From NCBI RefSeq assembly GCF_018446385.1, contig NC_055988.1, forward strand, positions 59,979,788 to 60,043,787: a stretch of DNA of 64,000 nt. Reading direction: 5' to 3'. The notes below the pieces were generated by a model. The model saw only the letters and a list, made by a program, of their open reading frames with translations. It did not search any database and was not told where the DNA came from. Below are positions 5,764 to 57,616 of the stretch, in pieces. The translations under genes and the position numbers were made by a program. Position 1 is the stretch's first letter. Every line of letters begins with the position of its first letter. Origin of the DNA: Zingiber officinale. Lineage: Eukaryota > Streptophyta > Magnoliopsida > Zingiberales > Zingiberaceae.

Positions 5764-5918
5764 TGTAACAACCCAATTTTCCCTATTTCAAGTTCTAAAA
5801 GTCCATAAAAATATTTGGAAATACTTTTAAAATATTCTAGAGATTTTTAGGAATTTTTAGAGTATTTTTACGTAATTTTTGGAGGTCGTTTAGTAGGGTT
5901 ACAAAAAGAAAGAAGTTT

Positions 5919-6012
5919 AAAAAAAAAAACGTTGAAGGTGAGATTCGAACCCATGACCTCGGGTCCGATTGACCCAAGAAAAACCGGCCCAACCAGCTGA
6001 GCTACACGGTTT
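5919..6012 (-). other. tRNA-like Pol III module 1 in LTR
   Basis: On the minus strand an A box TAGCTCAGCTGG (6004-5993) matches the TRGCNNAGYNGG consensus. It is followed 41 bases later by a B box GGTTCGAATC (5951-5942) and then by a run of eleven T (5929-5919). The order and spacing fit a type 2 RNA polymerase III promoter with terminator. The acceptor stem is not paired, so this is not a functional tRNA gene. Confidence 0.7.
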
Positions 6013-6074
6013 TTGTTAACCTTATATGGTGAGAATTAAATTTATAGCATAGTTAATGATTAGTGAATTAATTG

Positions 6075-6156
6075 GAAAAAATGCACGGCTGAGGGATTGA
6101 AGCCGAGACCTCTTGTTTCGGTTAAAAATCGGTTAACCAGCTGTGCCAGCGAGTTT
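6075..6156 (-). other. tRNA-like Pol III module 2 in LTR
   Basis: The minus-strand A box TGGCACAGCTGG (6148-6137) is followed by the B-box-like GGCTTCAATCC (6104-6094) and a T6 run just beyond. The B box departs from consensus (GGTTCGANTCC) at a few bases, but the same variant recurs in the LTRs at 35412, 55204 and 44606. Confidence 0.6.
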
Positions 6157-6214
6157 TGTTAATTAAGGAAAGAATGGATTATATTTAATGTATAGTAATT
6201 AATAAACATCTTAG

Positions 6215-6223
6215 TTATAAAAA
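6215..6223 (+). promoter_or_regulatory. LTR TATA box
   Basis: TTATAAAAA lies about 60 bp before the GC-rich leader. GTTATAA or ATTATAA recurs at the same place in the other LTRs (near 36018, 38237, 45202 and 55818), which supports it as the LTR promoter. Confidence 0.6.
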
Positions 6224-6504
6224 AAAAAGTTTTAAGTTTTTTTCCTGAAACCTAAATCTTTCTCACCCGAAACCTCTCCTTGCTCGCTCGCGACGGCGCC
6301 AGTTCTTCTCGGACGAATCCACAGCAGGGGATCTAGGGCTTCTCCGGCGGTGGGCGAGGAGGTTCTCCGAGGGGTTTTCTCCACCTACTTGAGATCGTCT
6401 CGTCGAGGAGCTTCCGTGGACACGAAGAGGAGCCAAGACCTTCAAGCTCTACCCGAAACCCTAGGGTTTTTCCTCTCCGTCGGTTGTAAGTGCAAGAACA
6501 AGAG

Positions 6505-8456
6505 GTGAGTTGCTTCTCACCTGCAGTAGGAGTTGTTCCGCGAGTTTTGATTTACGAATGAGCTCTGATTTGGTATTTCTGCGCCTTCCTGTTGTTCGGC
6601 TAGTTTTCTTTTGGTTCCTGCTATTTTGGGTTTGCTGCCGTGAAACCAAAAGGAAGAAGAGAAGGATTAGTTTAGGTTAGGCATGATGAACAGTTACAAA
6701 ATTTAGGTTTCTAGTAGCAATTTATCCTATTAGCAGCACATTGGTATCCTTTTTGGCTGTCTACTGTGGTTTTCATGAAGCAATTAAACCTTGAATTGTT
6801 CCTTACCAATCTGATTAAGTATAATTGGAAATTTTAGGTCGCTTTACAATAAGGGTTAAGCTAAGAAGGTGTTTCAGATTATAGAGTACAAAATTGGGTT
6901 AGTCCGGGAGTTTAAGCATAGCATGCGTTCTTGGGCTTTTCCTCTTAAGATCTGTTGTAGAAAAAAATTAGGATCATGTTGCTCTATAAAAGTATAAGAA
7001 TTGTAGTCATTTTTAGCTTGTTTTCTGTTGCTGTTGCTGGACATCAGATCTGTTTTAGAAGGGAATCACGATTCCTGCTGGGTTTCAGGAATTTGGAAGG
7101 ATAGTAAGGTTGTTAAGAGTTTAATAGAAGTCTTTCTTTTAATCGCTAGAGAAATTATAGGTTTCACTTGCTATTGGTATTGCTGGATTGAATTTAGTTG
7201 CCTTTCCTATTAGCAAGTGCAGAACCAGCAGTTTTCCTGGCCAAAACAGGGCACGAACAGCTATATATAAAGTGTATTTTGTGACATGATTAGTAAGATT
7301 AGATGTGCTTTCTTTTTCTTTGTTTTACAGCATGTATAGGAAGCTCAAAGTTGCATTCTTTTGCTCTATCTTACAGCATGTTTAGTAAGTCCAAGTTAGC
7401 TTTCTTTTGCTCTATTTTACAGCATGTTTAGAAAGTCTAAGTTAGCTTTCTTTTGCTCTATTTTACAGCATGTTTAGAAAGTCCAAGTTGCTTTCTTTTG
7501 CTCTATTTTATAGCATGATTAGTAAGTTCAAAGTTGCTTTCTTTTGCTCTATTTTATAGCATGATTAGTAAGCTCAAAGTTGTTTTCATTTGCTATTTTA
7601 ATAAGCATGAACAACCATGTATTCTAGTGGAAAAATAAGAATCCTATTAAATACTTTTAGAAGTATTAACAAGTAAAAGAAAGAAAAAGAAAAGAAAGAG
7701 AAAGGCCAAGGCCTTAAGTAAATTCCAAAGTCCAGACTTTAGGGATTTTTGCACACAAGGTGTCTATTAAAATGCCAAGGCATTTAAAGAAGAAGTAATT
7801 AAGATTATAAGTATTTTACTTTTAAAGGGCATGTACCGGACACAAGGTCCAAGGGATGGGCTCCAAGTTGCCCCTAGGCACAAGGCCTAGAAGTATCTTA
7901 GTAGTTTCGGGATTAGCTACCTCGATTCTTATTAAGAATGCGCGCAAAGTGGTACAATGCCGGGCCCAAGAGAAGTTGATTATTATTTTCAAGTATTAAA
8001 GTATAAATTTTAAACAAGTGAAATAAAAGAATAAATTTAGAGTAAATGAAGTAAGTTTCACTTTGTTTTAAAGATCAGCAAGATTAGCTTTCTTTTATGC
8101 TAGCAGCTTTTACATGTTTAGTTTCTTACATGTTATTTATTTGCTAGTTGATGAGCATGTTTAGTTTTATATGTTAGCTTTTCTGTTAGTTGATTTCTTT
8201 GCTATTTATGAGCATGAGTAGTTATACATGTTAGCTTTTCTGTTAGTTGATTTCTTTGCTATTTATGAGCATGAGTAGTTATACATGTTAGCTTTTCTGT
8301 TAATTGATTTCTTTGCTATTTATGAGCATGAGTAACTTTACATGTTTGCATTCAGTTTTAGCATGTTTTTATTTGTATACATGCATATCGAGTTTTTGTG
8401 AGTAGATAGCGCTCACTAAGCTTTATGCTTATAGACTGCATTTCCTCCTACTGCAG
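6505..8456 (+). other. Putative intron inside the LTR
   Basis: The donor-like AGAG/GTGAGT at 6505 lies in a small inverted repeat (GGTGAGT...CTCACC). The acceptor-like TTCCTCCTACTGCAG ends at 8456 and is followed by ATAAAGGAAAAGC. Both sites recur at the same relative places in every long LTR in the window. A second possible donor, GTAAGT, is at 6486. Splicing is inferred, not seen. Confidence 0.5.
7325..7600 (+). repeat. 46-bp tandem repeat in LTR
   Basis: About six copies of a 46-bp unit containing AGCATGTTTAGAAAGTCC and CTTTCTTTTGCTCTATTTTA, also present at 1020-1295 in the 5' LTR. A second block of 57-bp units with GAGCATGAGTAG follows at 8150-8340, three copies here against two in the 5' LTR. 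Confidence 0.85.
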
Positions 8457-8746
8457 ATAAAGGAAAAGCTAAGGTATGAAAGGAAGGCGACAAGGTGGTG
8501 GTGATGAAGGTGTGTGATGGCTGGACTATGGAGAGATCATGAGTTTGCTATGGAGTGTTAAAACTTACCTGATTAGAGTTTCCTTTTCTTTTCTCCTTAA
8601 TGCTATGATGAAGTTGAGATTGTAATTGAGTCTATTCCGCACTTTGTTATGTTTTATTGTTGGAGTATTATCTGTTTACTATTGCTAGAGTAGTTTCATT
8701 CTTCTTATTGAGTTATTATACTGCGTGGTTGAGTGATTATATGTTC

Positions 8747-8828
8747 CAGCCGCCTGTGGCTGAGTATACACTGTTTGTATTGTTGATTTGGTCAGCGGTA
8801 CAGGGGAGATTCTGCCGAAATTTTTCGG
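8747..8828 (+). other. Paired hairpins near LTR end
   Basis: CAGCCGCCTGTGGCTG (8747-8762) and CCGAAATTTTTCGG (8815-8828) can each form a short stem. Both recur before the right end of the LTRs ending at 41065, 47874, 51795 and 57616, and in diverged form in the minus-strand LTR at 15578. The role is unknown; the 3' end of the transcript is one possibility. Confidence 0.55.
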
Positions 8829-9239
8829 TAGGGTTTTCCATGTGATTTTTAATAAACCGGTTAAGTAGAGTTAGTAGATAAGTAACGGTCACTCTTAGAG
8901 AGTAGTAGTGTTGTAAGAAGGGTGGTCGTTACATATCCACTGAACTTAATACAAAACCTTGGTCCAACTGGTTATGATTCGTAAGGGGTAGCTTCGGCTA
9001 GTTCCACTTAGCCAAATGCACCAGGTCGAAACCATATCTTCCTAGACATGCATAGACTAAGTTTCCTTAACGTACTATCATCCAAAACTTCACCAGTACC
9101 ATAGGTCAAGTTAAACTTTGTCCCTTTTTAACTTGTCCTAATTACCCTGTTAGGTAGATTTGTTTGGGTTACCCTTTCGGATAGGTTAGTTTCGGAGGTG
9201 CCAGCTATTCTGGAGCCTCCCCTGAATTATTGGCTTTTT

Positions 9240-33700: not shown

Positions 33701-35406
33701 AAAATATTAATTAAAAATTATGGATGATGACGTATTTATGATAAGCTCAATGATACGGATGCATAGAAACTTGTTTCATCAAATTCCGATGTCTCTAGGT
33801 CCATATTTAGGCCTTAGGTGTTTGATTTTATTTATTTAAAATTATTTTCAGTTTTGGGACGAATTCCTGGATTCGTCCCAAATTTTGGGACGAATCCAGA
33901 GATTCGTCCCAAAATTTTATTTTTTAAAAAATAAAAAAACAAACTTGGACGGCTTAAATACGGACCTAGAGATATCGGAATTTGATTAAACAAGTTTTTA
34001 TCTGCTCGTATCATTATCCTGATCGTAAATCTATCAATAAAAATATTTTTTACCAAATATATATAATTTTGGAATTTTTTAATCCCAAATTGACCTAATT
34101 GGGTGTTAAAAATTCAAATCGCTGAAAATATTAATTACAAATTATGGATGATGACGTATTTACGCTCAGCTCAACGATACGGATGCATAGAAACTTGTTT
34201 TATCAAATTCCGATGTCTCTAGGTCCATATTTAGGCTTTAGGTGTTTGATTTTATTTATTTAAAATTATTTTCAGCTTTTGGGACGAATCCAGAGATTCG
34301 TCCCAAAATTTTATTTATTAAAAAATAAAAAAACAAACTTGGACGCCTTAAATACGGACCTAGAGATATCGGAATTCAATGAAACAAGTTTCTATATGTT
34401 CATATCATTATCCTGATCGTAAATCTATCAATAAAAATATTTTTTACCAAATATATATATTTTTGGAATTTTTTAATGCCAAATTGACCTAATTGGGTGT
34501 TAAAAATTCAAATCGCTTAAAATATTAATTAAAAATTATGGATGATGATGTATTTATGATCAGCTCAACGATACGGACGCATAGAAACTTGTTTCATCAA
34601 ATTCCGATGTCTATAGGTCCATATTTAGGCCTTAGGTGTTTGATTTTATTTATTTAAAATTATTTTCAGTTTTGGGACGAATCTCTGGATTCGTCCCAAA
34701 TTTTGGGACGAATCCAGAGATTCGTCCCAAAATTTTATTTATTAAAAAATAAAAAAACAAACTTGGACACCTTAAATACGGACCTAGAGACATCGGAATT
34801 TGATGAAACAAATTTCTATGTGCTCGTATCATTATCCTGATCGTAAATCTATCAATAAAAATATTTTTTACCAAATATATATATTTTTGGAATTTTTTAA
34901 TCCCAAATTGCCTAATTGGGTGTTAAAAATTCAAATCACTGAAAATATTAATTAAAAATTATGGATGATGACGTATTTACGATCAGCTCAACGATACGGA
35001 CGCACAGAAACTTGTTTCATCAAATTCCGATGTATCTAGGTCCATATTTAAGCTTTCGGACACTAATTTACAACCGTTCACTACAAACACCTTTTTTGTT
35101 AGTATCAACCTATATATGTTTTAAAAAATATATACCTAGAGACATCGGAATTTGATGAAACAAGTTTCTATATGCTCGTATCATTATCCTGATCATAAAT
35201 CTATCAATAAAAATATTTTTACCAAATAGATATATTTTTGGAATTTTTTAATCCCAAATTAACCTAATTGGGTGTTAAACATTCAAATCGCTGAAAATAT
35301 TAATTAAAAATTATCGATGATGACATATTTACGATCAGCTCAATGATACAGACGCATAGAAACTTGTTTCATCAATTTCCGATGTCACTAGGTCCATATT
35401 TAGGCC
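30791..35406. repeat. CACTA right subterminal array, proximal part
   Basis: About eleven units of 350-515 bp. Each has an AT-rich core with TTGACCTAATTGGGTG, two inverted arms of about 70 bp (one with GACATCGGAATTTGATGAAA, the other its reverse complement), and a spacer. Most spacers are GGGACGAATCC/GGATTCGTCCC hairpins; those near 32265, 33465 and 35055 are of another kind containing TTCACTACAAACACC. ORFs here repeat from unit to unit and are not genes. Confidence 0.9.
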
Positions 35407-35411
35407 TTAGG

Positions 35412-37208
35412 TGTAACGACCCAATTTTCCCTATTTCAAGTTCTAAAAGTCCATAAAAATATTTGGAAATACTTTTAAAATATTCTAAAGATTTTTAGGA
35501 ATTTTTAGAATATTTTTATGCAAATTTTGGAGTCCGTTTGGTATTTTTACCAAGGAGAATAAGTTTTAAAAATAAACTAAAAAAAAAAAAGGGTTGTAGA
35601 AGCTGGGTTTCGAACCCAGCACCCCTGGCCCAAGCAAAACCGGCCCAACCAACCGAGCTGCGCTCGATTTGTTAATCATATATGGAGCGATATATATTTA
35701 AGTAGTAGTTAGGAACAGTAAAATAAATTGGAATTAAAAGTGCGCGGCTGAGGGATTGAAGCCGAGACTCATTGATTCAGTAAAAGGCCAGCTAACCAAC
35801 TGGGCTAGCAGTTGTTACTTAATCAAATAAAGGGAGAATTTTATTTAATGAGTAGAAGTTAATAACAAGAATTAATAGGCAGAAAATGGTTGCAGCCGAG
35901 TTTCGAACCCGCAACACAAGCCTTAAGCAAAACGCAGCCAACCGACTATACTAGCGATCGTTTGTTATTAAAGAAGGAGAAAAATTCCATTTAAGCTATA
36001 GTTGGAACCGAAAATAACCCTAGTTATAAAGTGAGGACTAAAGTGATTTTCGGAAAACCTAAAATTTCTTTTCCTCTCCTCACCTCTCGCGTGCGACGGC
36101 GGCAGATCAGGCGGAAGGTGAAGCCGACCTAGGGTTCCTCTCCGGCGGCCGGCAAGGGCTTCTTTTCAGAAGTCGTTCACGGATTCGTGGTCTCCTCGTC
36201 AAGGAGAACACGCGGATAGGAAGGGATCGCAGAGATCTTCACATCATCCGAACCCTAGATCTTCCTCCGGTTGTAAGTTCAAGAACAGCGAGGTGAGTTG
36301 CTACTCACCTGCGGTTGTAATAGACGTGCAGTTTTCCTTTTCTAGCTTCCCCTTAGCTATTTGTAAGTATGAGTAGACTTCTTTTCTATTGCTATTAGAC
36401 ATGCAGATTTTCTTTGCTATCAGTTTAACATGAGCAGTATTGATTCCTATTTTTAGTCCTTTACTACTAGATACACATGAGCAGTTTCCTTTAGTTTTCA
36501 TTTGCTATTTTAACAAGCATGAACAACCATGTATTCTAGTGGAAAAATAAGAATCCTATTAAATACTTTTAGAAGTATTAACAAGTAAAAGGAAGAAAAA
36601 GAAAAGAAAGAGAAAGGTCAAGGCCTTAAGTAGATCCCAAAGTCAAGACTTTAGGGATTTTTAGCACACAAGGTGCTTATTAAAATGCCAAGGCATTTAA
36701 AGAAGAAGTAATTAAGATATAACAAGTATTTTACTTTTAAATGGCATGTACCGGACACAAGGTCCAAGGGATGGGCTCCAAGATGCCCCTAGGCACAAGG
36801 CCTAGAAGTATCTTAGTAGTTTCAGGATTAGCTACCTCGATCCTTACTAAGAATGCGCGCAAAGTGGTACAATGCCGGGCCCGAAAGAAGTTGATTATTA
36901 TTTTCAAGTATTAAAAGTATAAGTTTATGAACAAGGAAAAAAATAAGTTTTACATAAGAATAAAAGTACTAAAGAATGAGTTTTAAGCAAGTGAAATAAA
37001 AGAATCAGCTTAGAACAAGTAAAACAAGTTTCGCTTTATTTAAAGATCAGTAAGTTTAGCTTCCTTTTATGCTAGCAGCTTTTACATGTTTAGTTTTCTT
37101 ACATGTTATTGATTTGCTAGTTGATGAGCATGTTTAGCTATACATGTTAGCTTTTCAGTTAGTTGATTCCTTTGCTATTTATGAGCATGAGTATCTTTAC
37201 ATGTTAGC
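35412..37208 (+). repeat. Outer 5' LTR, first part
   Basis: It starts TGTAACGACCCAATTTTCCC and breaks at TTAGC (37204-37208), continuing at 51801. It matches 55204-57001 almost base for base. Donor-like GTGAGT is at 36293; the matching acceptor CTACTGCAG ends at 51909, now on the far side of the inner element. Confidence 0.95.
35580..35960 (-). other. Three tandem tRNA-like modules in outer 5' LTR
   Basis: On the minus strand, module 1 has A box CAGCTCGGTTGG (35660-35649), B box GGGTTCGAAAC (35617-35607) and then T12. The A-to-B gap of 31 bases is close to that of real tRNAs; the T arm (CTGGG-TTCGAAA-CCCAG) and the D stem are fully paired. Module 2 has TAGCCCAGTTGG (35807-35796), GGCTTCAATCC (35763-35753) and T4. 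Module 3 has TAGTATAGTCGG (35953-35942), a GGGTTCGAAAC B box (near 35910-35900) and T4. Acceptor and anticodon stems are not paired. Confidence 0.75.
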
Positions 37209-37849
37209 TGTAACGACCCGACCCTCTTGGCCTCTTGGGCGGCCCTTGTGGCGGCCCAACTAGCGGCCCTTATGTCGTCGGCCCATTTGGCGACCTCTAA
37301 TGTCGTCGACCGACGACCCTTGGTCGTGTCGTTACTCACTAGGACTTTCCACCCCTGGCCAGTGGATTTTTGCCTCTCCCAAGTTTCGAACTCTAAACCT
37401 CCAGGCTTAAGTATTAGAGTTTATGAATCCTGGTAACCAAGTGAGATCATCTCACTTGGTTACCAGGATTCATAAACTCTAGTACTCGACGACATGAGAG
37501 GTCGCCAAATGGGCCGACGACATAAGGGCCGCCAGTTGGGCCGCCACAAGGGCCGCCCAAGAGGCCAAAGGGTCGGGTCGTTACAATAAAAAGGCGCCTT
37601 TTTATTGTAACGACCCGGCCCTCTTGGCCCATTTGGCGGCCCATTTGGCGACCCTCGGGTCGTCGACCGTCGGCCCTTATGTCGTCGGCCCATTTGGCGA
37701 CCTCTCATGTCGTCGACCGACGACCCTTGGCCGTGCCGTTACTCACTAGGACTTTCCACCCCTGGCAGTGGATTTTTGCCTCCCCCAGGATTCGAACTCT
37801 AAACCTCCAGGCTTAAGTATTAGAGTTTATGAATCCTGGTAACCAAGTG
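37209..37849. repeat. Fold-back of three units replacing the start of the inner 5' LTR
   Basis: Unit A (+) 37209-37447 starts TGTAACGACCCGACCCTCTT. Unit B is an inverted, internally shortened copy (37449-37585). A 20-bp perfect palindrome around GGCGCC follows (37586-37605), then unit C (+) from TGTAACGACCCGGCCC at 37606 to AACCAAGTG at 37849. The normal LTR body resumes at GGAAATACTT. The 3' LTR has 53 bp (48538-48590) in place of this block. The units look like the first 240 bp of another LTR family, including its own tRNA-like TTCGAA segment. Confidence 0.88.
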
Positions 37850-37967
37850 TGGAAATACTTTTAAAATATTCTAGAGATTTTTAGAAATTTTTAGAGTATT
37901 TTTTTGCAATTTTTGGAGGTCATTTAGTATGTTTACAAAAAGAAAGAAAGTTTGATAAATAAATGTG

Positions 37968-38190
37968 TTGAAGCTAGGTCTCGAACCCGTGACCTGGGGT
38001 CAGACACGACCCAACCGGACGCAGCTTGACCAGCTGAGCCAGCGAGTTTTTGTTAATTATATAGGAGGTGGAATATATTTAAACTATAGTTAGAGCGTTT
38101 TGAATAAAAGGGGAATAAAAGTGCGCGGCTGGGATTCGAACCCATGAGCTGGGCTTTAAGCAAAACCGGCCCAAACCAGCTGAGCTACAC
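37968..38190 (-). other. Two tRNA-like modules in inner 5' LTR
   Basis: Module 1 has A box TGGCTCAGCTGG (38041-38030) and B box GGGTTCGAGAC (37988-37978). Module 2 has A box TAGCTCAGCTGG (38187-38176), B box GGGTTCGAATCCC (38143-38131) and T4. Both A boxes match the consensus fully. The same pair is in the 3' LTR at about 48710-48935. Confidence 0.72.
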
Positions 38191-40159
38191 GAACTTTGTC
38201 AACCTAATATGGAGAGAATTGGATATAAAGTATAGTTATAATGGAAAACCCTAGATTTAAAAGAAGGCTTAAGTTTCTCCCGAACCAAAATCCCGAAACC
38301 TCTTCTTCTCCTCCTCGCGTGCGCCGTTTCTTCTCGGGCGAAACCGCAGAAACCCTAGTTTCTTCTCCGGCGGTCGGCAGAGGGTTGTCTTCGAGAATCC
38401 TTCACATTCTCGTGATCTTCTTGACGTGGAGAGCACGTAGACGTGAAGAAGGCGCTGCGATTTTGAGTCTCGTCCGAACCCTAGAAGCCTCTTTTCTTCT
38501 CTGGTTGTAAGTTCTAAGAGCAAGGGTAAGTACTACTCACCTGTGGTAGGAGTTGCTTCGATCTTTCGGTTTTCATTTCCTTGTTTTCCTGAGTTTCTTG
38601 AATCCGAAACATGCTATAAAGATTTTGGCTTTGGATGTTCTGCCGTGGGTTTCCTTTGCATTTCGGTTGTAACATGCCTAAAGGTTTCTGTGATTCTGTG
38701 AAGGTATAGTTTTGAATAAGTTACGTGGGTTTTGTTTGTAACATTTCAGCAAGCAGAATTATGCTAGGAAAGGGGCACGATCAGCCTTGTTACTTGGTTC
38801 CAGGAGTAGATTCTATGTTATTTGTAAATTGTACACATTGCTATGTGTTTATTGAGTTCTTTAGAGTTGGATTTCTTAAGTTTCAATTCAGCAAGTTGGA
38901 TTCTTGCTTTTGGGTGGCTGCTGTGAGTTGATAAAAGGGAGAAGAAGGGATTTGAATGGTTTTAAGTCTGTCCTAGCTTAAAGCATGTGGTGTTAGCTTT
39001 AGATACTTGCTGTTTTAGATTTCTTTTGAATTTGGTTCATTCCTGTGGACTGAACAGTAGCAATTCTTCAGCTTTCTTTTGGCTGCCGTGAGTTTTATAG
39101 GAAGTTGAGAAGAGGTTTTAGGTAAATGGAATAGTTTCCATTAGAAATTAGTTGGGCAGGTGTAATTTCCCCTTGCTGCCATGAAACTTAATTTAAGCTG
39201 TGTAGTATTGAACAGCTTATTTGTAGCTTAGTTTTACCTTGTTATATTAAGCACAAACAACATACATTTAGAGCACCTTGTAGTTCAGTTTTCCTGGCCA
39301 AAAACAGGGCACGAACAGCTATATATAAAGTGTATTTTGTATAGCATGTTTAAAGGCCTTAAAGTAGTATTCTTTGTCATGTTTTAATAGCAGGTTTAGA
39401 AGCCCTAAAGTAGCATTCCTTGCCTATTTTTACAGCATGAATGGAGTCACTAAAGTAGCATCCTATACCTGTTTATTACAGCATACTTAGAAAGCCCAAA
39501 GTTAGCTTCCTTTTGCTTTATTTCTAGCATGATTAGAAAGTTTAAAGTAGTATGTTTTTGCCTATTTTGTATAGCATGTTTAGAAGATTAAAGTAGCATG
39601 TTTTATTCTATTTTTCAGCATGTTTAAAAGCCTTAGAGTAGTCATCCTTGCCATGTACTTACAGCAGGGTTAGCAGCCCTAAAGTATCGTTCTATACTTG
39701 TTTTTACAGCATGATTAGAATCATTTCATACTTGATTTTACAGCATGTTTAGAAGCACAAAAATAGCATCCTTTGCCATGTTTTCATCGTATGATTCAAA
39801 GGCTTTAAATTGCTTTCTTTAGTTTAGCTTATAGCATGATCAGTAAGCTTTAAGTTACTTGTTTTATTCTATTATATAGCATGGTTAGTTGATTATACAC
39901 CCATACTTGTTAAGTATATTTAAAGGACTCCCACAATCTTTAATAAAAGATAATAAGGAAGATAAAAGAATAAGAAAGATAACAAGTAAGTCAAGCAAGA
40001 GGCTAGTACCCGACATCCAAGAGCTTGTCGTTAAACAAATCCAGGTGACCATTTCCGAGGTCTTGGCCCTGGTAGACCGAGGTCTGCTCTTTTAGGATTG
40101 GTGGCTCGCAACCCCAACCTATTAGGGAACGCGCATGAGATGGTACTAAGCCTGGGCCC

Positions 40160-44605: not shown

Positions 44606-47600
44606 TGTAACACCCCAAATTTCATGATTTGGAGTCCCAAAAGACCTTATTAAAATCTAGAAATGCTATAGAAAAATTCTAGAGATTTTTAGGAATTTTT
44701 AGAGTATTTTTACGTAATTTTTGGAAGTTGTTTGGTATTTTTACCAAGAGAAAGAAGTTTATAAATATATATATATAAAAGTGTTAAAGCTGGGTTTTGA
44801 ACCCAAGAGCTCGGACCCGAATCAGATTTTAACGGACTCAGCCAACCATCTGGGCTATGGCTATTTTGTTTATAATATATGAGATAAGATGTAGAAAATG
44901 GTAATGGAGAATAATAGCAAGGGAAATAAGTTGAAGAAACTGGGTTTCGAACCGAGCTCCTCGGCCCAAGCAGAACTCGGCCCGACCAACCGTGCTATGC
45001 TCGATTGTTAACTTGATGTGAGAACAAATTTATATAAGGTATAGTTGGTAACAGAAAATAAATCGAAACGAAAAGTGCGCGGCTGAGGAATCGAAGCCGT
45101 GACCTTAGAATTGGTCAAAACCCGACTAAAGCAGGTGATCTAGCCGTTGGTTCCGTTGAGAAAAGGTAGGAAAATTATTTAACCAGTTAACAGAATATGG
45201 AGATTATAAAGAGGGATAAGTTGAGGTGGTAAATTCCCAAAATCGAAAACCCTTTACCCTCTCCCGATCGCGAGCGACGGCGACTCCCTCTCGGGCGAAG
45301 ACGCAACAAGGGACCTAGGGCTTGGTCTCCGGCGCCGGCGAAGGGTTGTTTACAACCGATCTTCACCCGTGTGTGGCCACTCCGACGAGGGGAGCTTGAA
45401 AACACAAAGAGGTTGCCGAGAATTGAAGCTCCTCCGAAGCCCTAGTTGCCTCCTTTCGGCTGTGAGTCCAAGAACACGAAGGTAAGTCGCTACTCACCTG
45501 CGGTAAGGGTAGCTCCGGGGTTTTTATTTCTTTTCTTTGCAATCCGAAGCATGCATGAACCCTAGTTTTCAGTTTGGTTTTGATCTTGTATTCTGTTCTT
45601 GTAGAATAGCTTCGAATTTTGGTTTTTCGGATAGGAATGAGTAAGCTAGTTCTGAGTTCTTGTTGAGATCGAATTCGTTGTTGTATTTGATCCTTTCTTT
45701 ACTCCCGAGACCTAGCATTCTCGGTCCCTTTTTGGTTTTCTGGCAGTGGCACTGAACAGGAGTTTTGGGAAGTTTCGGTTTGTGCTTTGGAATGGGCATG
45801 AATGGTTTGGAGTTTTTTGGATAGGATTGAAGTGCTTAGAGATGTTTTTTTTTATGTGTTCAGTTCATGAGTTGGTTGAGCAAATGTTGGATCGGATTCA
45901 AGGTTGATTAGAACCCTTAATGATGCTTTCAGATTTTAAGCTTAGGTTTGAGTTTTAGTTTCCTTCTTTGATTCAGATTAAGCTGTACCTACCTTCTTAG
46001 TTTCGGTTTATCTTGAAGTTTGCTGCCATGAAACCAAAAGTTAGTTATTTAGATTTGGAGAAGAGTAAACCTTTTGTGCTATAAGTTGAACAAGGATAGC
46101 CCATTAAACCTATCCTAGCTTTAGAGCTTGCATTGCAGATTTTTGATTGTCTAGCATGGCAGATTTTGAATGGTTAGCATTGTAGATTAGCATTGCAGAG
46201 TTTTTTTGGTTTATTCTAGCATGCTGTTTGGGCTTTCCCATTTGCTATTGAATATGCATGATTAGATTTCATTTTCTATTTCGTGGCTATAGGTTTGAGC
46301 ATGAGTAGATTTAGAGTTCTAGTTCCTTATGTAATTAAATGTGCATGAGTGACATTCCTTTAAAGCAATCAGTTTCTGGTTTCTTTTGTATTGGTTATGT
46401 ATGCAGAATTTGTCATTGTAGGTTAGTTTTTCCTTGCTAATTCTATGCACATGTTCAGTTTAAGGTTGGTTTCTCCTTGTTAATTCCTTAATTGAAGCAT
46501 GTGAACTCAAATTACGAGCATGAACAGTTTATGTTAAGTTCAGCAAGTCTAGTTTTGTGTTACACTTCAATTTCAGCAAGTTTAAATTCCAGTTAGTAGA
46601 TCTTGTTGGTTCATTACTACCTCATTTAGCATGGACAGATTTATTTCGGCTTTAGTTGTGGTTTCCTACTAAAGTACCAAAAGATAAGAGTAAAAAGAGA
46701 TAAAGAAAAGAAAAGAAAAGGCCGAGGCCTTAAGTAGATCCCAAAGTCGAGACTTTAGGGATTTTTGGCACACAAGGTGCCTATTAAAATGCCGAGGCAT
46801 TTAAAGAAGAAGTAAATAAGCTAATAAGTATTTTACTTTTAAGAAGAGGCTAGTACCCGACATCCAAGAGCTTGTCGTTAAACAAATCCAGGTGTCCAAT
46901 TCCGAGGTCTTGTCTCGTAGACCGAGGTCCGCTTCTTTAGGATTGGTGGCTCGCACCCCAACCTATTAGGACGCGTAAGATGGTACTACGCCTGGGCCCA
47001 AGAAGAAGTTGATTATTATTTTGAAGTATTATAAGTATAAGCTTTTGAACTAATAAAACAATGTGTTTACAAAAGTTTACAGGTATTAAAGAATAAGTTT
47101 TAAATAAGTGAAATAAAAGAATAAGTTTTTAAGTAAGTTTAATAAGAATCAGAAAGTGTTTAGAATTCAGTAAGTTAAGTTCTTTATGCTAGCATGATAG
47201 TATAGACTTGTCTTACATGTTTAGCCTTTCAGTATGTTTCTTTACTATTAGAAGAGCATGAGTTAGCTTACTGTTATTTGCTATTTATGAGCATGAGTAG
47301 CTTTTCATGTTAGCATTCAGTTTTAGCATGTTTTTATTTATACACATGCATATCGAGTTTTTGTGAGTTAGATAGCGCTTACTAAGCAAATTTTGCTTAT
47401 AGACTACACTTCCTCTTACTGCAGATAAAGGAAAAGAGAAGATTTAGCAAGGAAGGCGACAAGGTGGCGCGGATGGTGTGTGATGCCAGGACTATGGAAG
47501 CCTTGGGACTTAGTTTAGGAATTTATTAAGATTGTCATTTATTAAGAATGTATTAGATGAGTCATTTAGTCTTCCGCTGTTAGTTAATTGTATGTTTTTA

Positions 47601-47874
47601 TTTTGTTTCCTCTATTCATTGCTTGCATGATTTGATTTCATTAAACTGCGTGGGATGTTATTCCTTTTGTGTGCTTGATATGCGTTCCAGCCGCCTGTGG
47701 CTGTGTATATTATGTTATGTATTAATGATTATGGTCACCGGTACAGGGGAGACTCTGCCGAAATTTTTCGGTAGGGTTTCCACGTGATTTTTAATCACAC
47801 CGGTTAAGTAGAGTTAGTAGTTAAGTAACGGTCATCCTTAGAGAATAGTAGTAGTAAGAAGGGTGGTCGTTACA
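44606..47874 (+). repeat. 3' LTR of innermost element (3269 bp)
   Basis: It starts TGTAACACCCCAAATTTCAT and ends GGTGGTCGTTACA. It has three antisense tRNA-like modules, a TATA word near 45202, donor-like GTAAGT at 45482, an acceptor-like TACTGCAG ending at 47424, and the two hairpins near its end. Confidence 0.95.
44775..45145 (-). other. Three tRNA-like modules in innermost 3' LTR
   Basis: Module 1 has A box TAGCCCAGATGG (44857-44846), B box GGGTTCAAAACCC (44803-44791) and T4. Module 2 has A box TAGCACGGTTGG (44997-44986) and B box GGTTCGAAACCC (44953-44942) without a clear T4. Module 3 has a weak A box near 45142-45131, B box GGCTTCGATTCC (45098-45087) and T4. Confidence 0.68.
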
Positions 47875-47879
47875 TTATG

Positions 47880-48502
47880 AAGCACTATATGGCAGGAAAT
47901 GCAGATCACCCATATGCTGGCAAGAAGCAGGAGAGAGAAAAGAGATAGAAGCAGAGTTGGGCATTCAGACAGAGGTGATAGATGAGACTACTCAAGCAAT
48001 CCAGAAAATCAGACAGAGAATTGAGACTGGCCAGAGCAGACAGAAGAGTTATGCTGACACACGCCGTGGGCCATTGGAGTTCCAAGTAGGAGATTCAGTT
48101 TTCCTCAAGGTCGCTCCTATGAAGGGAGTGATGAGATTTGGCAAGAAGGGCAAATTAAGTCCTCGCTATGTAGGACCTTACCTGATCATAGAAAGGATTG
48201 GGAAAGTAGCTTACAGGCTGGACTTACCACAAGACATGTCAGCAATACACAATGTGTTTCATGTCTCTATGCTAAAGAAGTGTCTCCGTGACCCGAGCCA
48301 AGTGATTCAGCCTCAGTCAATGCAGATCCAAGAGGATCTTAGTTATGAGAGCAGACCTACACAGATAGTGGACAGAACAGTCAAGAGATTGAGAAACAAA
48401 GAAGTACCACTAGTGAAGGTCGTCTGGCAGAACCAGAAGCACGAGGAAATCACTTGGGAGCGGGAGGACAGTATGAGACAGAAGTATCCAGAGCTATTCT
48501 AA
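47880..48502 (+). pseudogene. Integrase C-terminus and chromodomain of inner element
   Basis: Continues the integrase of 43475-44175 after the innermost insertion (EALYGRKCRSP words at 47880-47915). 47957-48502 is one open frame: the GPY/F-like region (GKLSPRYVGPYLI) and a chromodomain (IVDRTVKRLRNKEVPLVKV, then HEEITWERED), ending at a normal stop. This half is well preserved. Confidence 0.88.
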
Positions 48503-48537: not shown

Positions 48538-50932
48538 TGTAACAACCCAATTTTCCCCTATTTCGAGTTCCAAATGTCCATAAAAATATTTGGAAATACT
48601 TTTAAAATATTCTAGAGATTTTTAGAAATTTTTAGAGTATTTTTATGCAATTTTTGGAGGTCATTTAGTATGTTTACAAAAAGAAAGAAAGTTTGATAAA
48701 TAAATGTGTTGAAGCTAGGTCTCGAACCCGTGACCTGGGGTCAGACACGACCCAACCGGACGCAGCTTGACCAGCTGAGCCAGCGAGTTTTTGTTAATTA
48801 TATAGGAGGTGGAATATATTTAAGCTATAGTTAGAGCGTTTTGAATAAAAGGGGAATAAAAGTGCGCGGCTGGGATTCGAACCCATGAGCTGGGCTTTAA
48901 GCAAAACCGGCCCAAACCAGCTGAGCTACACGAACTTTGTCAACCTAATATGGAGAGAATTGGATATAAAGTATAGTTATAATGGAAAACCCTAGATTTA
49001 AAAGAAGGCTTAAGTTTCTCCCGAACCAAAATCCCGAAACCTCTTCTTCTCCTCCTCGCGTGCGCCGTTTCTTCTCGGGTGAAACCGCAGAAACCCTAGT
49101 TTCTTCTTCGGCGGTCGGCAGAGGGTTGTCTTCGAGAATCCTTCACATTCTCGTGATCTTCTTGACGTGGAGAGCACGTAGACGTGAAGAAGGCGCTGCG
49201 ATTTTGAGTCTCGTCCGAACCCTAGAAGCCTCTTTTCTTCTCTGGTTGTAAGTTCTAAGAGCAAGGGTAAGTACTACTCACCTGTGGTAGGAGTTGCTCC
49301 GATCTTTCGGTTTTCATTTCCTTGTTTTCCTGAGTTTCTTGAATCCGAAACATGCTATAAAGATTTTGGCTTTGGATGTTCTGCCGTGGGTTTCCTTTGC
49401 ATTTCGGTTGTAACATGCCTAAAGGTTTCTGTGATTCTGTGAAGGTATAGTTTTGAATAAGTTACGTGGGTTTTGTTTGTAACATTTCAGCAAGCAGAAT
49501 TATGCTAGGAAAGGGGCACGATCAGCCTTGTTACTTGGTTCCAGGAGTAGATTCTATGTTATTTGTAAATTGTACACATTGCTATGTGTTTATTGAGTTC
49601 TTTAGAGTTGGATTTCTTAAGTTTCAATTCAGCAAGTTGGATTCTTGCTTTTGGGTGGCTGCTGTGAGTTGATAAAAGGGAGAAGAAGGGATTTGAATGG
49701 TTTTAAGTCTGTCCTAGCTTAAAGCATGTGGTGTTAGCTTTAGATACTTGCTGTTTTAGATTTCTTTTGAATTTGGTTCATTCCTGTGGACTGAACAGTA
49801 GCAATTCTTCAGCTTTCTTTTGGCTGCCGTGAGTTTTATAGGCAGTTGAGAAGAGGTTTTAGGTAAATAGAATAGTTTCCATTAGAAATTAGTTGGGCAG
49901 GTGTAATTTCCCCTTGCTGCCATGGAACTTAATTTAAGCTGTGTAGTATTGAACAGCTTATTTGTAGCTTAGTTTTACCTTGTTATATTAAGCACAAACA
50001 ACATACATTTAGAGCACCTTGTAGTTCAGTTTTCCTGGCCAAAAACAGGGCACGAACAGCTATATATAAAGTGTATTTTGTATAGCATGTTTAAAGGCCT
50101 TAAAGTAGTATTCCTTGTCATGTTTTAATAGCAGGTTTAGAAGCCCTAAAGTAGCATTCCTTGCCTATTTTTACAGCATGAATGGAGTCACTAAAGTAGC
50201 ATCCTATACCTGTTTATTACAGCATACTTAGAAAGCCCAAAGTTAGCTTCCTTTTGCTTTATTTCTAGCATGATTAGAAAGTTTAAAGTAGTATGTTTTT
50301 GCCTATTTTGTATAGCATGTTTAGAAGATTAAAATAGCATGTTTTATTCTATTTTTCAGCATGTTTAAAAGCCTTAGAGTAGTCATCCTTGCCATGTACT
50401 TACAGCAGGGTTAGCAGCCCTAAAGTATCGTTCTATACTTGTTTTTACAGCATGATTAGAATCATTTTATACTTGATTTTACAGCATGTTTAGAAGCACA
50501 AAAATAGCATCCTTTGCCATGTTTTCATCGTATGATTCAAAGGCTTTAAATTGCTTTCTTTAGTTTAGCTTATAGCATGATCAGTAAGCTTTAAGTTACT
50601 TGTTTTATTCTATTATATAGTATGGTTAGTTGATTATATACCCATACTTGTTAAGTATATTTAAAGGACTCCCACAATCTTTAATAAAAGATAATAAGGA
50701 AGATAAAAGAATAAGAAAGATAAAAAGTAAGTCAAGCAAGAGGCTAGTACCCGACATCCAAGAGCTTGTCGTTAAACAAATCCAGGTGACCATTTCCGAG
50801 GTCTTGGCCCTAGTAGACCGAGGTCTGCTCTTTTAGGATTGGTGGCTCGCAACCCTAACCTATTAGGGAACGCGCATGAGATGGTACTAAGCCTGGGCCC
50901 AAAGTAAAGAAAAGTAAAGAAGTAAAGAAGTA

Positions 50933-50964
<32 letters not shown>

Positions 50965-51795
50965 AGAAGAAAGAAAAAAAATAGAAATTAAAAGATTAAT
51001 TTCTAACACAAGGATACAAGAAATGAAATAAGTTCCAAGCTTAGAATAAATAAGAATGGTTAGTTTCTTTAATTCTAAGTTTACATAGTTAGTTTCTTGT
51101 TATTCTGCTTGATACTGAGTATGATTTGTATCTAGTTCATTTTCTGTATACCATGAGCATATGCAGATAGTTTTAGTATTTCAGTTTCAGTACTTATGCA
51201 TTTCATTTATGCATTTCGAGTTTTGTGAGATAGATTAGTACTTACTAAGCGTTTTCTCTTATAGATCTTTTCTTTTTCCTCCTACCGCAGATAAAGGAAA
51301 AGCTAAGATATGAAGGGAGGCGACAGGGTGGTGGTAATGATGGATGTGTGTGGTGACTGAACTATGGAGAGGTCCAGAGGGGACTAGCAAGACTTATTTA
51401 TTTAGAGTTTATGTCTAGTTTATTTTTCCTTATTTCTGTTATGAAATTTTGAGTTTATGATTGAGTTTGATGTGCATTGTAGCTTATTATGCTTCATTCT
51501 GGGAGCTTGAGTTTAGTTCATGTTGCTAGATTAGTTTTTGATTTTGATATGATTTATTACTGCGTGGTTGTGAATAAATTGTGATCCAGCCGCATGTGGC
51601 TGTGTATATATCTTGTGTATTATAGATTTGGTCACCGGTACAGGGGAGACTCTGCCGAAATTTTTCGGTAGGAATTCCTCTGAACCGTGATAAATCCAAC
51701 TGACTCTAATAATAGCGTCAGTGACACTAGTAAGTAGAGTATAGATAGGTAATGGTCGCCCTTAGAGAGTAGTAGTAAGAAGGGTGGTTGTTACA
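48538..51795 (+). repeat. Inner 3' LTR (3258 bp)
   Basis: It starts TGTAACAACCCAATTTTCCC and ends GGTGGTTGTTACA. It carries two tRNA-like modules (about 48710-48790 and 48862-48935, minus strand), a TATA word near 48978, donor-like GTAAGT near 49267 and an acceptor ending at 51290. Confidence 0.95.
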
Positions 51796-55203: not shown

Positions 55204-57616
55204 TGTAACGACCCAATTTTCCCTATTTCAAGTTCTAAAAGTCCATAAAAATATTTGGAAATACTTTTAAAATATTCTAAAGATTTTTAGGAATTTTTAG
55301 AGTATTTTTATGTAAATTTTGGAGTCCGTTTGGTATTTTTACCAAGGAGAATAAGTTTTAAAAATAAACTAAAATAAAAAAAAAAAGGGTTGTAGAAGCT
55401 GGGTTTCGAACCCAGCACCCCTGGCCCAAGCAAAACTGGCCCAACCAACCGAGCTGCGCTCGATTTGTTAATCATATATGGAGCGATATATATTTAAGTA
55501 GTAGTTAGGAATAGTAAAATAAATTGGAATTAAAAGTGCGCGGCTGAGGGATTGAAGCCGAGACTCGTTGATTCGGTAAAAGGCCAGCTAACCAACTGGG
55601 CTAGCAGTTGTTACTTAATCAAATAAAGGGAGAATTTTATTTAATGAGTAGAAGTTAATAACAAGAATTAATGGGCAGAAAATAGTTGCAGCCGAGTTTC
55701 GAACCCGCAACACAAGCCTTAAGCAAAACGCAGCCAACCGACTATGCTAGCGATCGTTTGTTATTAAAGAAGGAGAAAAATTCCATTTAAGCTATAGTTG
55801 GAACCGAAAATAACCCTAGTTATAAAGTGAGGACTAAAGTGATTTTCGGAAAACCTAAAATTTCTTTTCCTCTCCTCACCTCTCGCGTGCGACGGCGGCA
55901 GATCAGGCGGAAGGTGAAGCCGACCTAGGGTTCCTCTCCGGCGGCCGGCAAGGGCTTCTTTTCAGAAGTCGTTCACGGATTCGTGGTCTCCTCGTCAAGG
56001 AGAACACGCGGATAGGAAGGGATCGCAGAGATCTTCACATCATCCGAACCCTAGATCTTCCTCCGGTTGTAAGTTCAAGAACAGCGAGGTGAGTTGCTAC
56101 TCACCTGCGGTTGTAATAGACGTGCAGTTTTCCTTTTCTAGCTTCCCCTTAGCTATTTGTAAGTATGAGTAGACTTCTTTTCTATTGCTATTAGACATGC
56201 AGATTTTCTTTGCTATCAGTTTAACATGAGCAGTATTGATTCCTATTTTTAGTCCTTTACTACTAGATACACATGAGCAGTTTCCTTTAGTTTTCATTTG
56301 CTATTTTAACAAGCATGAACAACCATGTATTCTAGTGGAAAAATAAGAATCCTATTAAATACTTTTAGAAGTATTAACAAGTAAAAGGAAGAAAAAGAAA
56401 AGAAAGAGAAAGGTCACGGCCTTAAGTAGATCCCAAAGTCAAGACTTTAGGGATTTTTGGCACACAAGGTGCTTATTAAAATGCCAAGGCATTTAAAGAA
56501 GAAGTAATTAAGATATAACAAGTATTTTACTTTTAAATGGCATGTACCGGACACAAGGTCCAAGGGATGGGCTCCAAGATGCCCCTAGGCACAAGGCCTA
56601 GAAGTATCTTAGTAGTTTCGGGATTAGCTACCTCGATCCTTACTAAGAATGCGCGCAAAGTGGTACAATGCCGGGCCCGAAAGAAGTTGATTATTATTTT
56701 CAAGTATTAAAAGTATAAGTTTATGAACAAGGAAAAAAATAAGTTTTACATAAGAATAAAAGTACTAAAGAATGAGTTTTAAGCAAGTGAAATAAAAGAA
56801 TCAGCTTAGAACAAGTAAAACAAGTTTCACTTTGTTTTAAAGATCAGTAAGTTTAGCTTCCTTTTATGCTAGCAGCTTTTACATGTTTAGTTTTCTTACA
56901 TGTTATTGATTTGCTAGTTGATGAGCATGTTTAGCTATACATGTTAGCTTTTCAGTTAGTTGATTCCTTTGCTATTTATGAGCATGAGTATCTTTACATG
57001 TTAGCATTCAGTTTTAGCATGTTTTTATTTATATACATGCATATCGTGATTTTGTGAGTTAGATAGCGCTCACTAAGCATTTTGCTTATAGATACTACTT
57101 TCCTCCTACTGCAGATAAAGGAAAAGGAAAGCTAAAGTATAAGAAGGAAGGCGACGAGGAGATGCTGTGACGGTGTGTGATGCCAGGACTATGGAGAGAT
57201 CATGAGTTTGCTAAGGAAACAGTCAAGACTCCTTTTGAGTTTTCTTTCAGTTATTAAGTTGATAGAGATTGTATTAGTTGTTTCCTTTGTCTATGTTGAT
57301 TAATTGAGTCTATTCCGCATTGTTAGTTGAGTTATTTCCTATTGTTGGAGCTATATAGTTTTCTATTGCTAGAATAGTTTCTTTTAGTGTCGTGTTATTA
57401 TTTCTGCGTGGTTGTGAAAAATATGTTCCAGCCGCCTGTGGCTGTGTATATAGTGTTTGTATCCCAGTTTGGGGTCATCGGTACAGGGGAGACTTTGCCG
57501 AAATTTTTCGGTAGAGTTTTCCTAGAGATTTTTAATAAACCGGTTAAGTAGAGTAGTAGATAGGTAACGGTCACTCTTAGAGAGTAGTAGTAGTAGTAAG
57601 AAGGGTGGTCGTTACA
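55204..57616 (+). repeat. Outer 3' LTR (2413 bp)
   Basis: It starts TGTAACGACCCAATTTTCCC, ends GGTGGTCGTTACA and is preceded by the tract AAGGTATGGGGAA. The uninterrupted version of the split 5' LTR. Confidence 0.95.
55374..55760 (-). other. Three tRNA-like modules in outer 3' LTR
   Basis: Copies of the 35580-35960 modules at about 55388-55468, 55537-55608 and 55681-55755, with the same A boxes, B boxes and T-runs. Confidence 0.72.

What the first reader, a model, noticed from the sequence alone, without database searches (positions are those of the whole stretch)
35580..35960. Tandem antisense tRNA-like Pol III modules built into long Ty3/gypsy LTRs
Seen: in the upstream part of every Tekay-type LTR whose start is present (5764, 35412, 37850, 44606, 48538, 55204), two or three modules in a row carry on the minus strand an A box (many perfect matches to TRGCNNAGYNGG), then a TTCGAA- or TTCAA-containing B box 31-45 bases later, then usually a T4-T12 run. 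In the first module here the D stem and T arm are fully paired and the A-to-B spacing is that of a real tRNA. Known: A and B boxes with a T-run make a Pol III gene. Inference: these LTRs carry Pol III units opposed to their own Pol II transcript, perhaps giving short antisense RNA, acting as boundary elements, or marking a captured tRNA-derived SINE that was kept and multiplied. Cassandra elements with 5S rRNA are the nearest parallel I know.
Basis: partly seen in the sequence, partly recalled or inferred. Interest (0 to 1): 0.87.

Follow-up and report, generated by a model that had tools for sequence, protein, structure and literature searches.

The report
Antisense Pol III promoters inside retrotransposon LTRs
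In what is very probably the ginger genome, a lineage of long retrotransposons carries one to three tRNA-gene-like start signals, pointing backwards, in its control regions; the signals have stayed more alike than the DNA between them, which suggests they are used as promoters, although no transcript has been seen.

Summary
In 64 kb, A+B box pairings scoring at least 16/18 occur 24 times on the minus strand (some are alternative pairings of one module) and never on the plus strand, all inside the six listed LTR copies; four shuffled LTR starts give about 0.007 against 15. That is the anatomy of a plant tRNA gene. Boxes, CAA and T-run outlast the DNA between them. The cloverleaf mostly does not: acceptor pairing is at chance and no list shows RF00005. 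A Pol III promoter, rather than a tRNA, seems to be kept. The 3.09-Gb genome matches published ginger. More diverged LTR families there carry one module in the same place. Known parallels (Cassandra, Helenus) are short TRIMs; here the modules sit antisense in the U3 of 2.4-3.3-kb LTRs of protein-coding-type Ty3/gypsy elements. Transcription and function are untested. New variant of a known kind.

The parts
35412..37208 (+). 5' LTR (family b) of a 22.2-kb nested insertion 35412-57616; interrupted after 37208 by nested elements
   Evidence: 98.9% identical to 55204-57005; 5-bp target duplication TTAGG on both sides of 35412-57616
35579..35671 (-). module b1: CAA 35669-35671, A box 35649-35660 (7/9), B box 35606-35616 (9/9), T12 run 35590-35579
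35736..35817 (-). module b2: A box 35796-35807 (9/9), B-like box 35752-35762 (8/9), T4 35739-35736; TAACAA shifted to 35812-35817
35883..35964 (-). module b3: CAA 35962-35964, A box 35942-35953 (8/9; 9/9 in the 3' LTR), B box 35899-35909 (8/9), T4 35886-35883
36022..36031 (+). putative Pol II TATA (AGTTATAAAG), 72 nt beyond the start of the last A box
   Evidence: TATAAA 63-72 nt beyond the last A start in 4 of 15 LTRs (a, b, d, L079); at 37 nt in 5 (c and relatives), where it overlaps the TATA-like stretch of the last module; not found in 6. Motif-level inference only
55204..57616 (+). 3' LTR of element b, 2413 bp, after PPT-like GGTATGGGGAAT; modules with A boxes at 55445-55456, 55592-55603, 55738-55749
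5764..8933 (+). 3' LTR of element a (5' LTR mate ends at 2551; 97.7% over 1-1981)
5919..6015 (-). module a1: CAA 6013-6015, A box 5993-6004 (9/9), B box 5941-5951 (8/9), T11
6076..6158 (-). module a2: CAA 6156-6158, A box 6137-6148 (9/9), B-like box 6093-6103 (8/9), T6
44777..44868 (-). module d1: CAA 44866-44868, A box 44846-44857 (8/9, spacing 42), B box 44793-44803 (9/9), T4; no TATA-like stretch at the usual place
44943..45007 (-). module d2: CAA 45005-45007, A box 44986-44997 (8/9), B box 44943-44953 (9/9); no near T4
45071..45149 (-). module d3: CAA shifted to 45147-45149, degenerate A box 45122-45133 (7/9), B-like box 45087-45097 (8/9), T4
48538..51795 (+). 3' LTR of element c (nested in the 5' LTR of b); the reading frame with the weak chromodomain match ends just before its PPT
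48718..48793 (-). module c1: CAA 48791-48793, A box 48771-48782 (9/9, spacing 42), B box 48718-48728 (9/9); T5 only 36 nt on
48858..48939 (-). module c2: CAA 48937-48939, A box 48917-48928 (9/9), B box 48873-48883 (9/9), T4
37977..38198 (-). both c modules again in the truncated 5' LTR copy (A boxes 38030-38041 and 38176-38187)
47858..48499 (+). integrase C-terminal SH3-like domain and weak chromodomain match of element c, next to the module-bearing LTR
   Evidence: Pfam PF24626 E 5e-28; PF00385 E 7e-4, below its cut-off

Best explanation
The U3 part of the LTRs in one chromovirus lineage of what is very probably ginger carries one to three tandem, tRNA-gene-derived RNA polymerase III (type 2) promoters facing away from the element's own Pol II start. 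Shown: most units have, in order and at nearly fixed distances, a CAA start motif, an A box, a B box and a T4 terminator, often with a TATA-like stretch before the CAA; these signals are conserved above the RNA body, and most of the cloverleaf is not. Inferred: TFIIIC and TFIIIB bind these units and Pol III makes short RNAs (median 81 nt if it stops at the first T4 after the B box; 27 modules measured). Because the RNA sequence drifts more than the promoter, I infer that the act of binding or transcribing is what is selected: it would keep the U3 free of nucleosomes and silencing just upstream of the Pol II promoter. The single module of more distant families was probably multiplied later at about 145-nt spacing.
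For: A+B pairings far above shuffles, one strand only at 16/18. Pairwise identity over 10 window modules: A 0.72, B 0.77, TTAACAA 0.72, TATA-like 0.64, against spacer 0.47 and the 7 nt between CAA and A 0.27; 0 of 178 circular shifts of the A+B mask reach the observed difference. CAA and TATA-like were not used to find modules. Gapless, A-anchored upstream block 0.625 against a jitter null of mean 0.39, maximum 0.49 in 1000. Over 36 modules in 15 LTRs: CAA at -4/-3 in 27; T4 at 12-17 in 29; TWWAAW at one distance (30 nt before the CAA) in 14; A 0.75, B 0.76, TTAACAAA 0.68, T-run 0.61 against lead 0.33, mid 0.49, spacer 0.51; A+B minus non-box regions 0.31 (bootstrap 0.28-0.34). No T4 starts in the 11 nt after any B box (0 of 36; 19% of random U3 windows have one). 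In 20 preset 10-kb stretches, 7 of 8 places similar to the LTR 5' end carry a B box where module 1 lies (scored, two of the seven read by eye). Most of the structure is not kept. Published plant tRNA genes use the same signals (PMC11700998, passages).
Against: No RNA, Pol III or chromatin data. 21 of 36 modules have a T4 inside the A-B body (2 have T5 or more), which could stop Pol III early. In the 36-module set the TATA-like stretch (0.54) is barely above its neighbour (mid 0.49), and in the m2-type modules of the window TTAACAA is not conserved (0.49, mid 0.52). Families f-h lack the CAA and have weak A boxes; family i lacks the CAA; d3 has a degenerate A box; c1 and d2 lack a near T4. Families b and e show no excess of box identity (A 0.89, B 0.91, spacer 0.91; in m1, A 0.73 is below spacer 0.82); m2/m3 are nearly identical between them. 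A and B scores were used to pick the 36 modules, which inflates their identity. T-stem (P 0.005) and D-stem (P 0.04) pairing are above shuffles, so some RNA structure may be kept, though these stems overlap the boxes. Three other plant-like chromovirus 3' LTR families (L001, L002/L003, L004) have no such modules, so the group at large does not need them.
Confidence: 0.47

Rival explanations
1. The modules are active Pol III genes whose antisense RNAs themselves matter, e.g. as small RNAs against the element's own 3' end, decoys for silencing, or tRNA-fragment-like RNAs.
For: Promoter anatomy with a start motif and a terminator; T-stem pairing above shuffles; Pol III RNAs from U3 matter in bovine foamy virus (PMC7693620, abstract and passages).
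Against: RNA body and lead sequence drift (lead 0.27-0.33, spacer about 0.5); folding z-scores of eight window modules lie between -1.8 and +0.6; internal T4 in 21 of 36.
Confidence: 0.2
2. Only TFIIIC binding matters (B-box sites used as insulators, like extra-TFIIIC sites); Pol III is not needed.
For: In the B-anchored comparison of nine families the B box is the best conserved part (0.81), including f-h with weak A boxes; binding of TFIIIC to B boxes, in active promoters and elsewhere, is described as contributing to chromatin architecture (PMC8007984, passages).
Against: CAA and T4 positions are kept too, which binding alone would not need.
Confidence: 0.15
3. Fossil: a tRNA gene or tRNA-derived SINE was inserted once in an ancestral LTR, duplicated with the U3, and is carried along without function.
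For: Tandem duplication is plain; acceptor stem gone and no RF00005 listed; b/e comparison shows no box excess; TTAACAA not conserved in m2-type modules.
Against: Under neutrality the boxes, CAA and T4 should drift like the spacer; in pairs with non-box identity under 0.45 (346 of 602) A is still 0.72, B 0.75, TTAACAAA 0.59 and T-run 0.59 against lead 0.23 and mid 0.40, with the caveat that A and B were used for selection.
Confidence: 0.15
4. The repeats are ordinary Pol II enhancer repeats of U3 whose resemblance to Pol III promoters is accidental.
For: U3 tandem repeats of unrelated sequence exist in another plant-like chromovirus (L002, seen by eye).
Against: Four to five Pol III signals in order and spacing, on one strand, are far beyond chance; 9 of 9 modules tested align to this genome's own tRNA genes above the best of 60 shuffles (b3 and d2 only by 0.5).
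Confidence: 0.03

Closest known systems
Helenus (TRIMp3), LTRs with tRNA-like sequence (Kojima 2024, PMC10886601; abstract, passages and discussion read)
   Same: tRNA-derived A and B boxes conserved inside an LTR, structure not kept, Pol III promoter inferred from conservation; the paper also says that not a few Repbase LTRs hold part of a tRNA, without analysing those over 1000 bp
   Different: Helenus are non-coding TRIMs (311-1263 bp in total) and the Pol III promoter is thought to make the template RNA. Here the LTR alone is 2.4 kb or more, pol domains (RT, RNase H, integrase) are present, and the units are antisense and tandem, so they cannot make the genomic RNA
Cassandra (5S rRNA-derived promoter in TRIM LTRs; as described in PMC10886601)
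   Same: Pol III promoter inside an LTR, widespread in plants
   Different: 5S rRNA-derived promoter in a short non-coding element; here tRNA-type (type 2), tandem, opposed
Foamy virus Pol III miRNA cassette in U3 (PMC7693620; abstract and passages read)
   Same: Pol III units in the U3 of an LTR in an element with its own Pol II promoter
   Different: Animal retrovirus, hairpin miRNA product shown to matter; here no conserved hairpin was found
Plant nuclear tRNA genes (PMC11700998; passages read)
   Same: TATA-like, CAA, A box, B box, poly(T); the paper finds a TATA motif in 22-32%, CAA within -10 in 36-45% and poly(T) in 67-72% of tRNA genes
   Different: No full cloverleaf and no RF00005 match listed here
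tRNA-derived SINEs (recalled)
   Same: A/B box head of tRNA origin
   Different: No SINE body, tail or target duplication seen around the modules (by eye); unit period about 145 nt with homologous flanks

Membership tests
Helenus / TRIMp3 | tRNA-derived A and B boxes in the LTR | tested here: met
Helenus / TRIMp3 | short non-coding element (under about 1.3 kb) | tested here: not met
   LTR b is 2413 bp; pol domains inside
Helenus / TRIMp3 | Pol III promoter oriented to make the element's template RNA | tested here: not met
   modules found are antisense to the element
plant type 2 Pol III gene | A and B boxes at tRNA-like spacing | tested here: met
   32-33 or 41-42 nt for nearly all 36 modules, d3 24
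plant type 2 Pol III gene | upstream CAA (and TATA-like), downstream T4+ | tested here: met
   27 of 36 CAA at -4/-3; 29 of 36 T4 at 12-17; TWWAAW at one distance in 14 of 36; CAA absent in f-h and i
plant type 2 Pol III gene | transcribed by Pol III | not testable with these tools
   no RNA or ChIP data
functional tRNA gene | covariance-model match and paired acceptor stem | tested here: not met
   ARAGORN default 0. In one search two lower-scoring matches of the clan of a 7-bit tmRNA match were left out of the list and could be tRNA models
Ty3/gypsy chromovirus | RT, RNase H, integrase and C-terminal chromodomain | tested here: met
   domains found over three element copies, not in one; chromodomain E 4e-5 and 7e-4, both below Pfam's cut-off
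Tekay clade | RT phylogeny with Tekay references | not tested
tRNA-derived SINE | tRNA head plus body and tail, target duplication | tested here: inconclusive
   only the head-like part is seen, by inspection of alignments

The most novel reading that the evidence does not exclude
A full-size Ty3/gypsy lineage has turned a captured tRNA gene into an array of antisense Pol III promoters at nucleosome-length (about 145 nt) spacing, used as an opening or anti-silencing device for its own Pol II promoter, and has so scattered perhaps tens of thousands of Pol III start sites over the ginger genome (a crude extrapolation from 7 module-bearing U3s in 4 of 20 ten-kb stretches).
Probability: 0.33. Interest if true: 0.85.

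Novelty: new variant of a known kind. Interest (0 to 1): 0.65.

Why it matters
The described Pol III promoters in LTRs that I know of belong to short parasites of other elements (Cassandra, Helenus) and to some animal retroviruses; the 2024 Helenus paper argues that the autonomous partners must use a Pol II promoter. Long, protein-coding-type plant elements with antisense tandem Pol III units would add a new way for an element to shape its own control region. If the units recruit TFIIIC and Pol III, this genome could hold many more Pol III sites than the 3514 tRNA genes annotated in ginger (PMC8342452, passage), and the question whether tRNA-gene-like sites protect DNA from silencing in plants becomes testable with simple reporters.

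Tried and rejected
Real tRNA genes: rejected (ARAGORN default 0; RF00005 absent at gathering and from the lists at E up to 10 or 5; one search left out two lower-scoring clan matches under a 7-bit, 15-nt tmRNA match). ARAGORN at 85% lists 11 in the window, 4 of them modules, and 128 at 75%, so it does not discriminate. A matching acceptor stem in c2 (6 of 7 in a shifted frame, counted by hand) was dropped as expected by chance over ten modules and three frames. A 145-nt spacing tied to nucleosomes is kept only as an idea. Isotype of the ancestor: tRNA-Ile scored best for 6 of 9 modules and tied for a seventh, but only 15 genes of 7 isotypes were compared, so no isotype is claimed. Related elements elsewhere: viral contigs gave nothing by protein; a DNA pattern found four viral contigs where the match overlaps an ARAGORN tRNA gene in all four, discarded; genome contigs gave five loci that look like plant contaminants, with three distinct usable 3' LTR families, none with modules. 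Box-specific conservation between b and e: not found; m2/m3 are nearly identical there. Paper searches for a plant parallel listed only the Helenus paper as a close match; most subscription journals are not in that library. MLV 'let' transcripts were recalled and searched for; none of the 8 papers listed of 58 held the term, so they are not used.

Full report
WHAT THE WINDOW IS. The window lies in an unnamed 3.09-Gb assembly, contig C3. Contig sizes of 194.39, 141.27 and 88.69 Mb match the published haplotype-resolved ginger genome (3.09 Gb, pseudochromosomes 88.69-194.39 Mb, scaffold N50 141.27 Mb; PMC8342452, passages), and the best named protein relatives are from Curcuma longa at 74-75% (120 of 7961 listed). 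Zingiber officinale is therefore very likely, by inference.

THE ELEMENTS. Six LTR copies of four families (a 5764; b 35412 and 55204; c 48538 and a truncated copy at 37850; d 44606) lie in nested Ty3/gypsy elements. Element b spans 35412-57616 with the target duplication TTAGG and a 2413-bp 3' LTR. LTR pairs are young: b 98.9%, c 98.9%, a 97.7% identical. Over three element copies the reading frames show RT, RNase H, integrase, a Tf2-1-like SH3 domain and a weak chromodomain match below Pfam's cut-off, which makes them chromoviruses; the clade name Tekay was not tested. No reading frame over 254 aa is open in the window, so these copies are decayed.

THE OBSERVATION. A+B box pairings of at least 16 of 18 matched positions occur 24 times on the minus strand and 0 times on the plus strand of the window, all in these LTR starts (at 15 of 18: 34 and 4). 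Four non-redundant starts hold 15 against a shuffle mean of 0.007, maximum 1 in 300 (some are alternative pairings of one module). Ten non-redundant modules were aligned.

MORE ANATOMY THAN REPORTED. Upstream of the A box each window family has TTAACAA or a close variant, and in nine of ten modules (not d1) a TATA-like stretch (by eye). CAA sits at -4 relative to the inferred tRNA start in six of the ten modules, at -3 in two (a2, d2), at 0 in b2 and at -9 in d3. T4 or longer starts 12-16 nt after the B box in eight of ten. Published plant tRNA genes show the same set, each signal in only part of the genes (PMC11700998, passages). So these are not just A and B boxes but tRNA-gene-type promoters.

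CONSERVATION. Mean pairwise identity over the ten modules: A 0.72, B 0.77, TTAACAA 0.72, TATA-like 0.64, spacer 0.47, far upstream 0.41, and only 0.27 in the 7 nt between CAA and the A box; no circular shift of the A+B mask (0 of 178) reaches the observed excess. By class, TTAACAA is 0.93 in m1 across families but only 0.49 in m2-type modules. A gapless test anchored on the A box, which leaves no freedom to the aligner, gives 0.625 for the best upstream block against a jitter null of 0.39 (maximum 0.49). In 36 modules from 15 of 17 LTRs examined (g and h gave none under the A-box threshold, and the third slot of i was missed) CAA is at -4/-3 in 27, T4 starts at 12-17 in 29, and TWWAAW lies at one distance in 14 with a second peak of 8 beside the CAA. 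Identities there: A 0.75, B 0.76, TTAACAAA 0.68, T-run 0.61, TATA-like 0.54, spacer 0.51, mid 0.49, lead 0.33. The excess of A+B over four non-box regions is 0.31 (bootstrap over LTRs 0.28-0.34). A and B were used to choose those modules, so that part is inflated; CAA, TATA-like and T4 were not, and of these the TATA-like signal is the weakest. T4 never starts in the 11 nt after the B box (0 of 36), although 19% of random U3 windows hold one.

STRUCTURE IS MOSTLY NOT KEPT. Acceptor pairing is 24 of 70 against a null of 24.2; anticodon stem 39 of 50 (null 37.4); D stem 30 of 40 (null 25.8, P 0.04); T stem 37 of 50 (null 28.6, P 0.005). RF00005 is in none of the lists; one search left out two lower-scoring matches of the clan of a 7-bit tmRNA match, which may be tRNA models. 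Eight window modules fold with z from -1.8 to 0.6. tRNA ancestry is still likely: nine of nine modules tested (d3 not tested) align to real tRNA genes of this genome above the best of 60 shuffles, b3 and d2 narrowly, though the shared boxes drive part of that.

OTHER COPIES IN THE GENOME. The eight family-b loci returned (two are the window) and the 17 family-e loci fetched all carry three module positions, some with one weaker box. Twenty 10-kb stretches at preset positions (200 kb) hold eight places, in five stretches, similar to the LTR 5' end. Seven carry a B box where module 1 lies; L042, whose similarity is only 51 nt, has none. Three of these families (L045, L050, L054) are much more diverged and have one module: B box 9/9, T4 about 12 nt on and TATA-like letters upstream, but a weak A box and no CAA. 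One box pair not near such an LTR was found in L038. The simplest history is one module in an ancestral LTR, later multiplied to two or three; A boxes of neighbouring modules lie 136-149 nt apart, 17 of 21 at 144-147. Families b and e share nearly identical m2/m3 but differ in m1, so U3 parts recombine. The first-look counts (11,884, 5,451 and 6,901 candidates for queries b, d and c) are unscored, but may point to thousands of copies. Three plant-like chromovirus LTR families from elsewhere lack the feature.

HOW IT MOST LIKELY WORKS. Shown: the signals and their conservation. Inferred: binding by TFIIIC/TFIIIB and Pol III. Since the RNA drifts more than the promoter, the binding or the act of transcription is the likeliest selected property. 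In families a, b and d (and L079) the last unit sits 63-72 nt before a TATAAA that may serve Pol II and points away from it; in c and four relatives the only TATAAA overlaps the module's own upstream stretch, and in six LTRs none was found. I favour a role in keeping U3 open. Published work ascribes nucleosome positioning and insulator roles to tRNA genes (PMC8007984, passages). Against this stand internal T4 runs in 21 of 36 modules, the missing CAA in f-h and i, and the absence of any expression data.

COMPARISON. The nearest published case is Helenus (PMC10886601; abstract, passages, discussion), short TRIMs with tRNA-like LTRs; the paper expects autonomous partners to use a Pol II promoter. 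The present elements fail two defining features (short and non-coding; promoter oriented to make the template RNA), so they are not Helenus. They work like it at most in using Pol III boxes in an LTR. Bovine foamy virus has a functional Pol III cassette in U3 (PMC7693620, abstract and passages), in a different kind of element. I found no report of this in plants in the held library.

Noticed in passing
30833-35414 and 57617-60239: Element b sits inside an array of direct and inverted repeats with palindromic TTCGTCCC/GGGACGAA motifs, which give sub-threshold Rfam plant microRNA matches such as MIR2646 on both strands.
   Followed up: no
26138-29842: Transposon remains of apparent CACTA type on the minus strand: Transposase_21, DUF4218, DUF4216 and Transpos_assoc domains.
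   Followed up: no
37209-37849: Fold-back sequence with inverted arms that begins TGTAACGACCC like the LTRs and stands where the first 53 bases of the c 5' LTR are missing.
   Followed up: partly
35412-35576 and the matching 5' ends of the other LTRs: The AT-rich first 165 bp of the LTR, with an inverted repeat, is well conserved between families and partly shared by the single-module families; no function is known to me.
   Followed up: partly
window LTRs and L018-L034: LTR family e looks like a mosaic: m2/m3 as in b, m1 with the spacing and boxes of a, which suggests recombination between LTR families.
   Followed up: partly
997-1300 and 7306-7610: A tandem repeat with a 46-bp shift lies in the downstream part of the family a LTR.
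   Followed up: no
L002, from 5541 on: The U3 of another plant-like chromovirus, apparently contamination in a bacterial genome record, has tandem repeats of about 50 bp without Pol III boxes.
   Followed up: no
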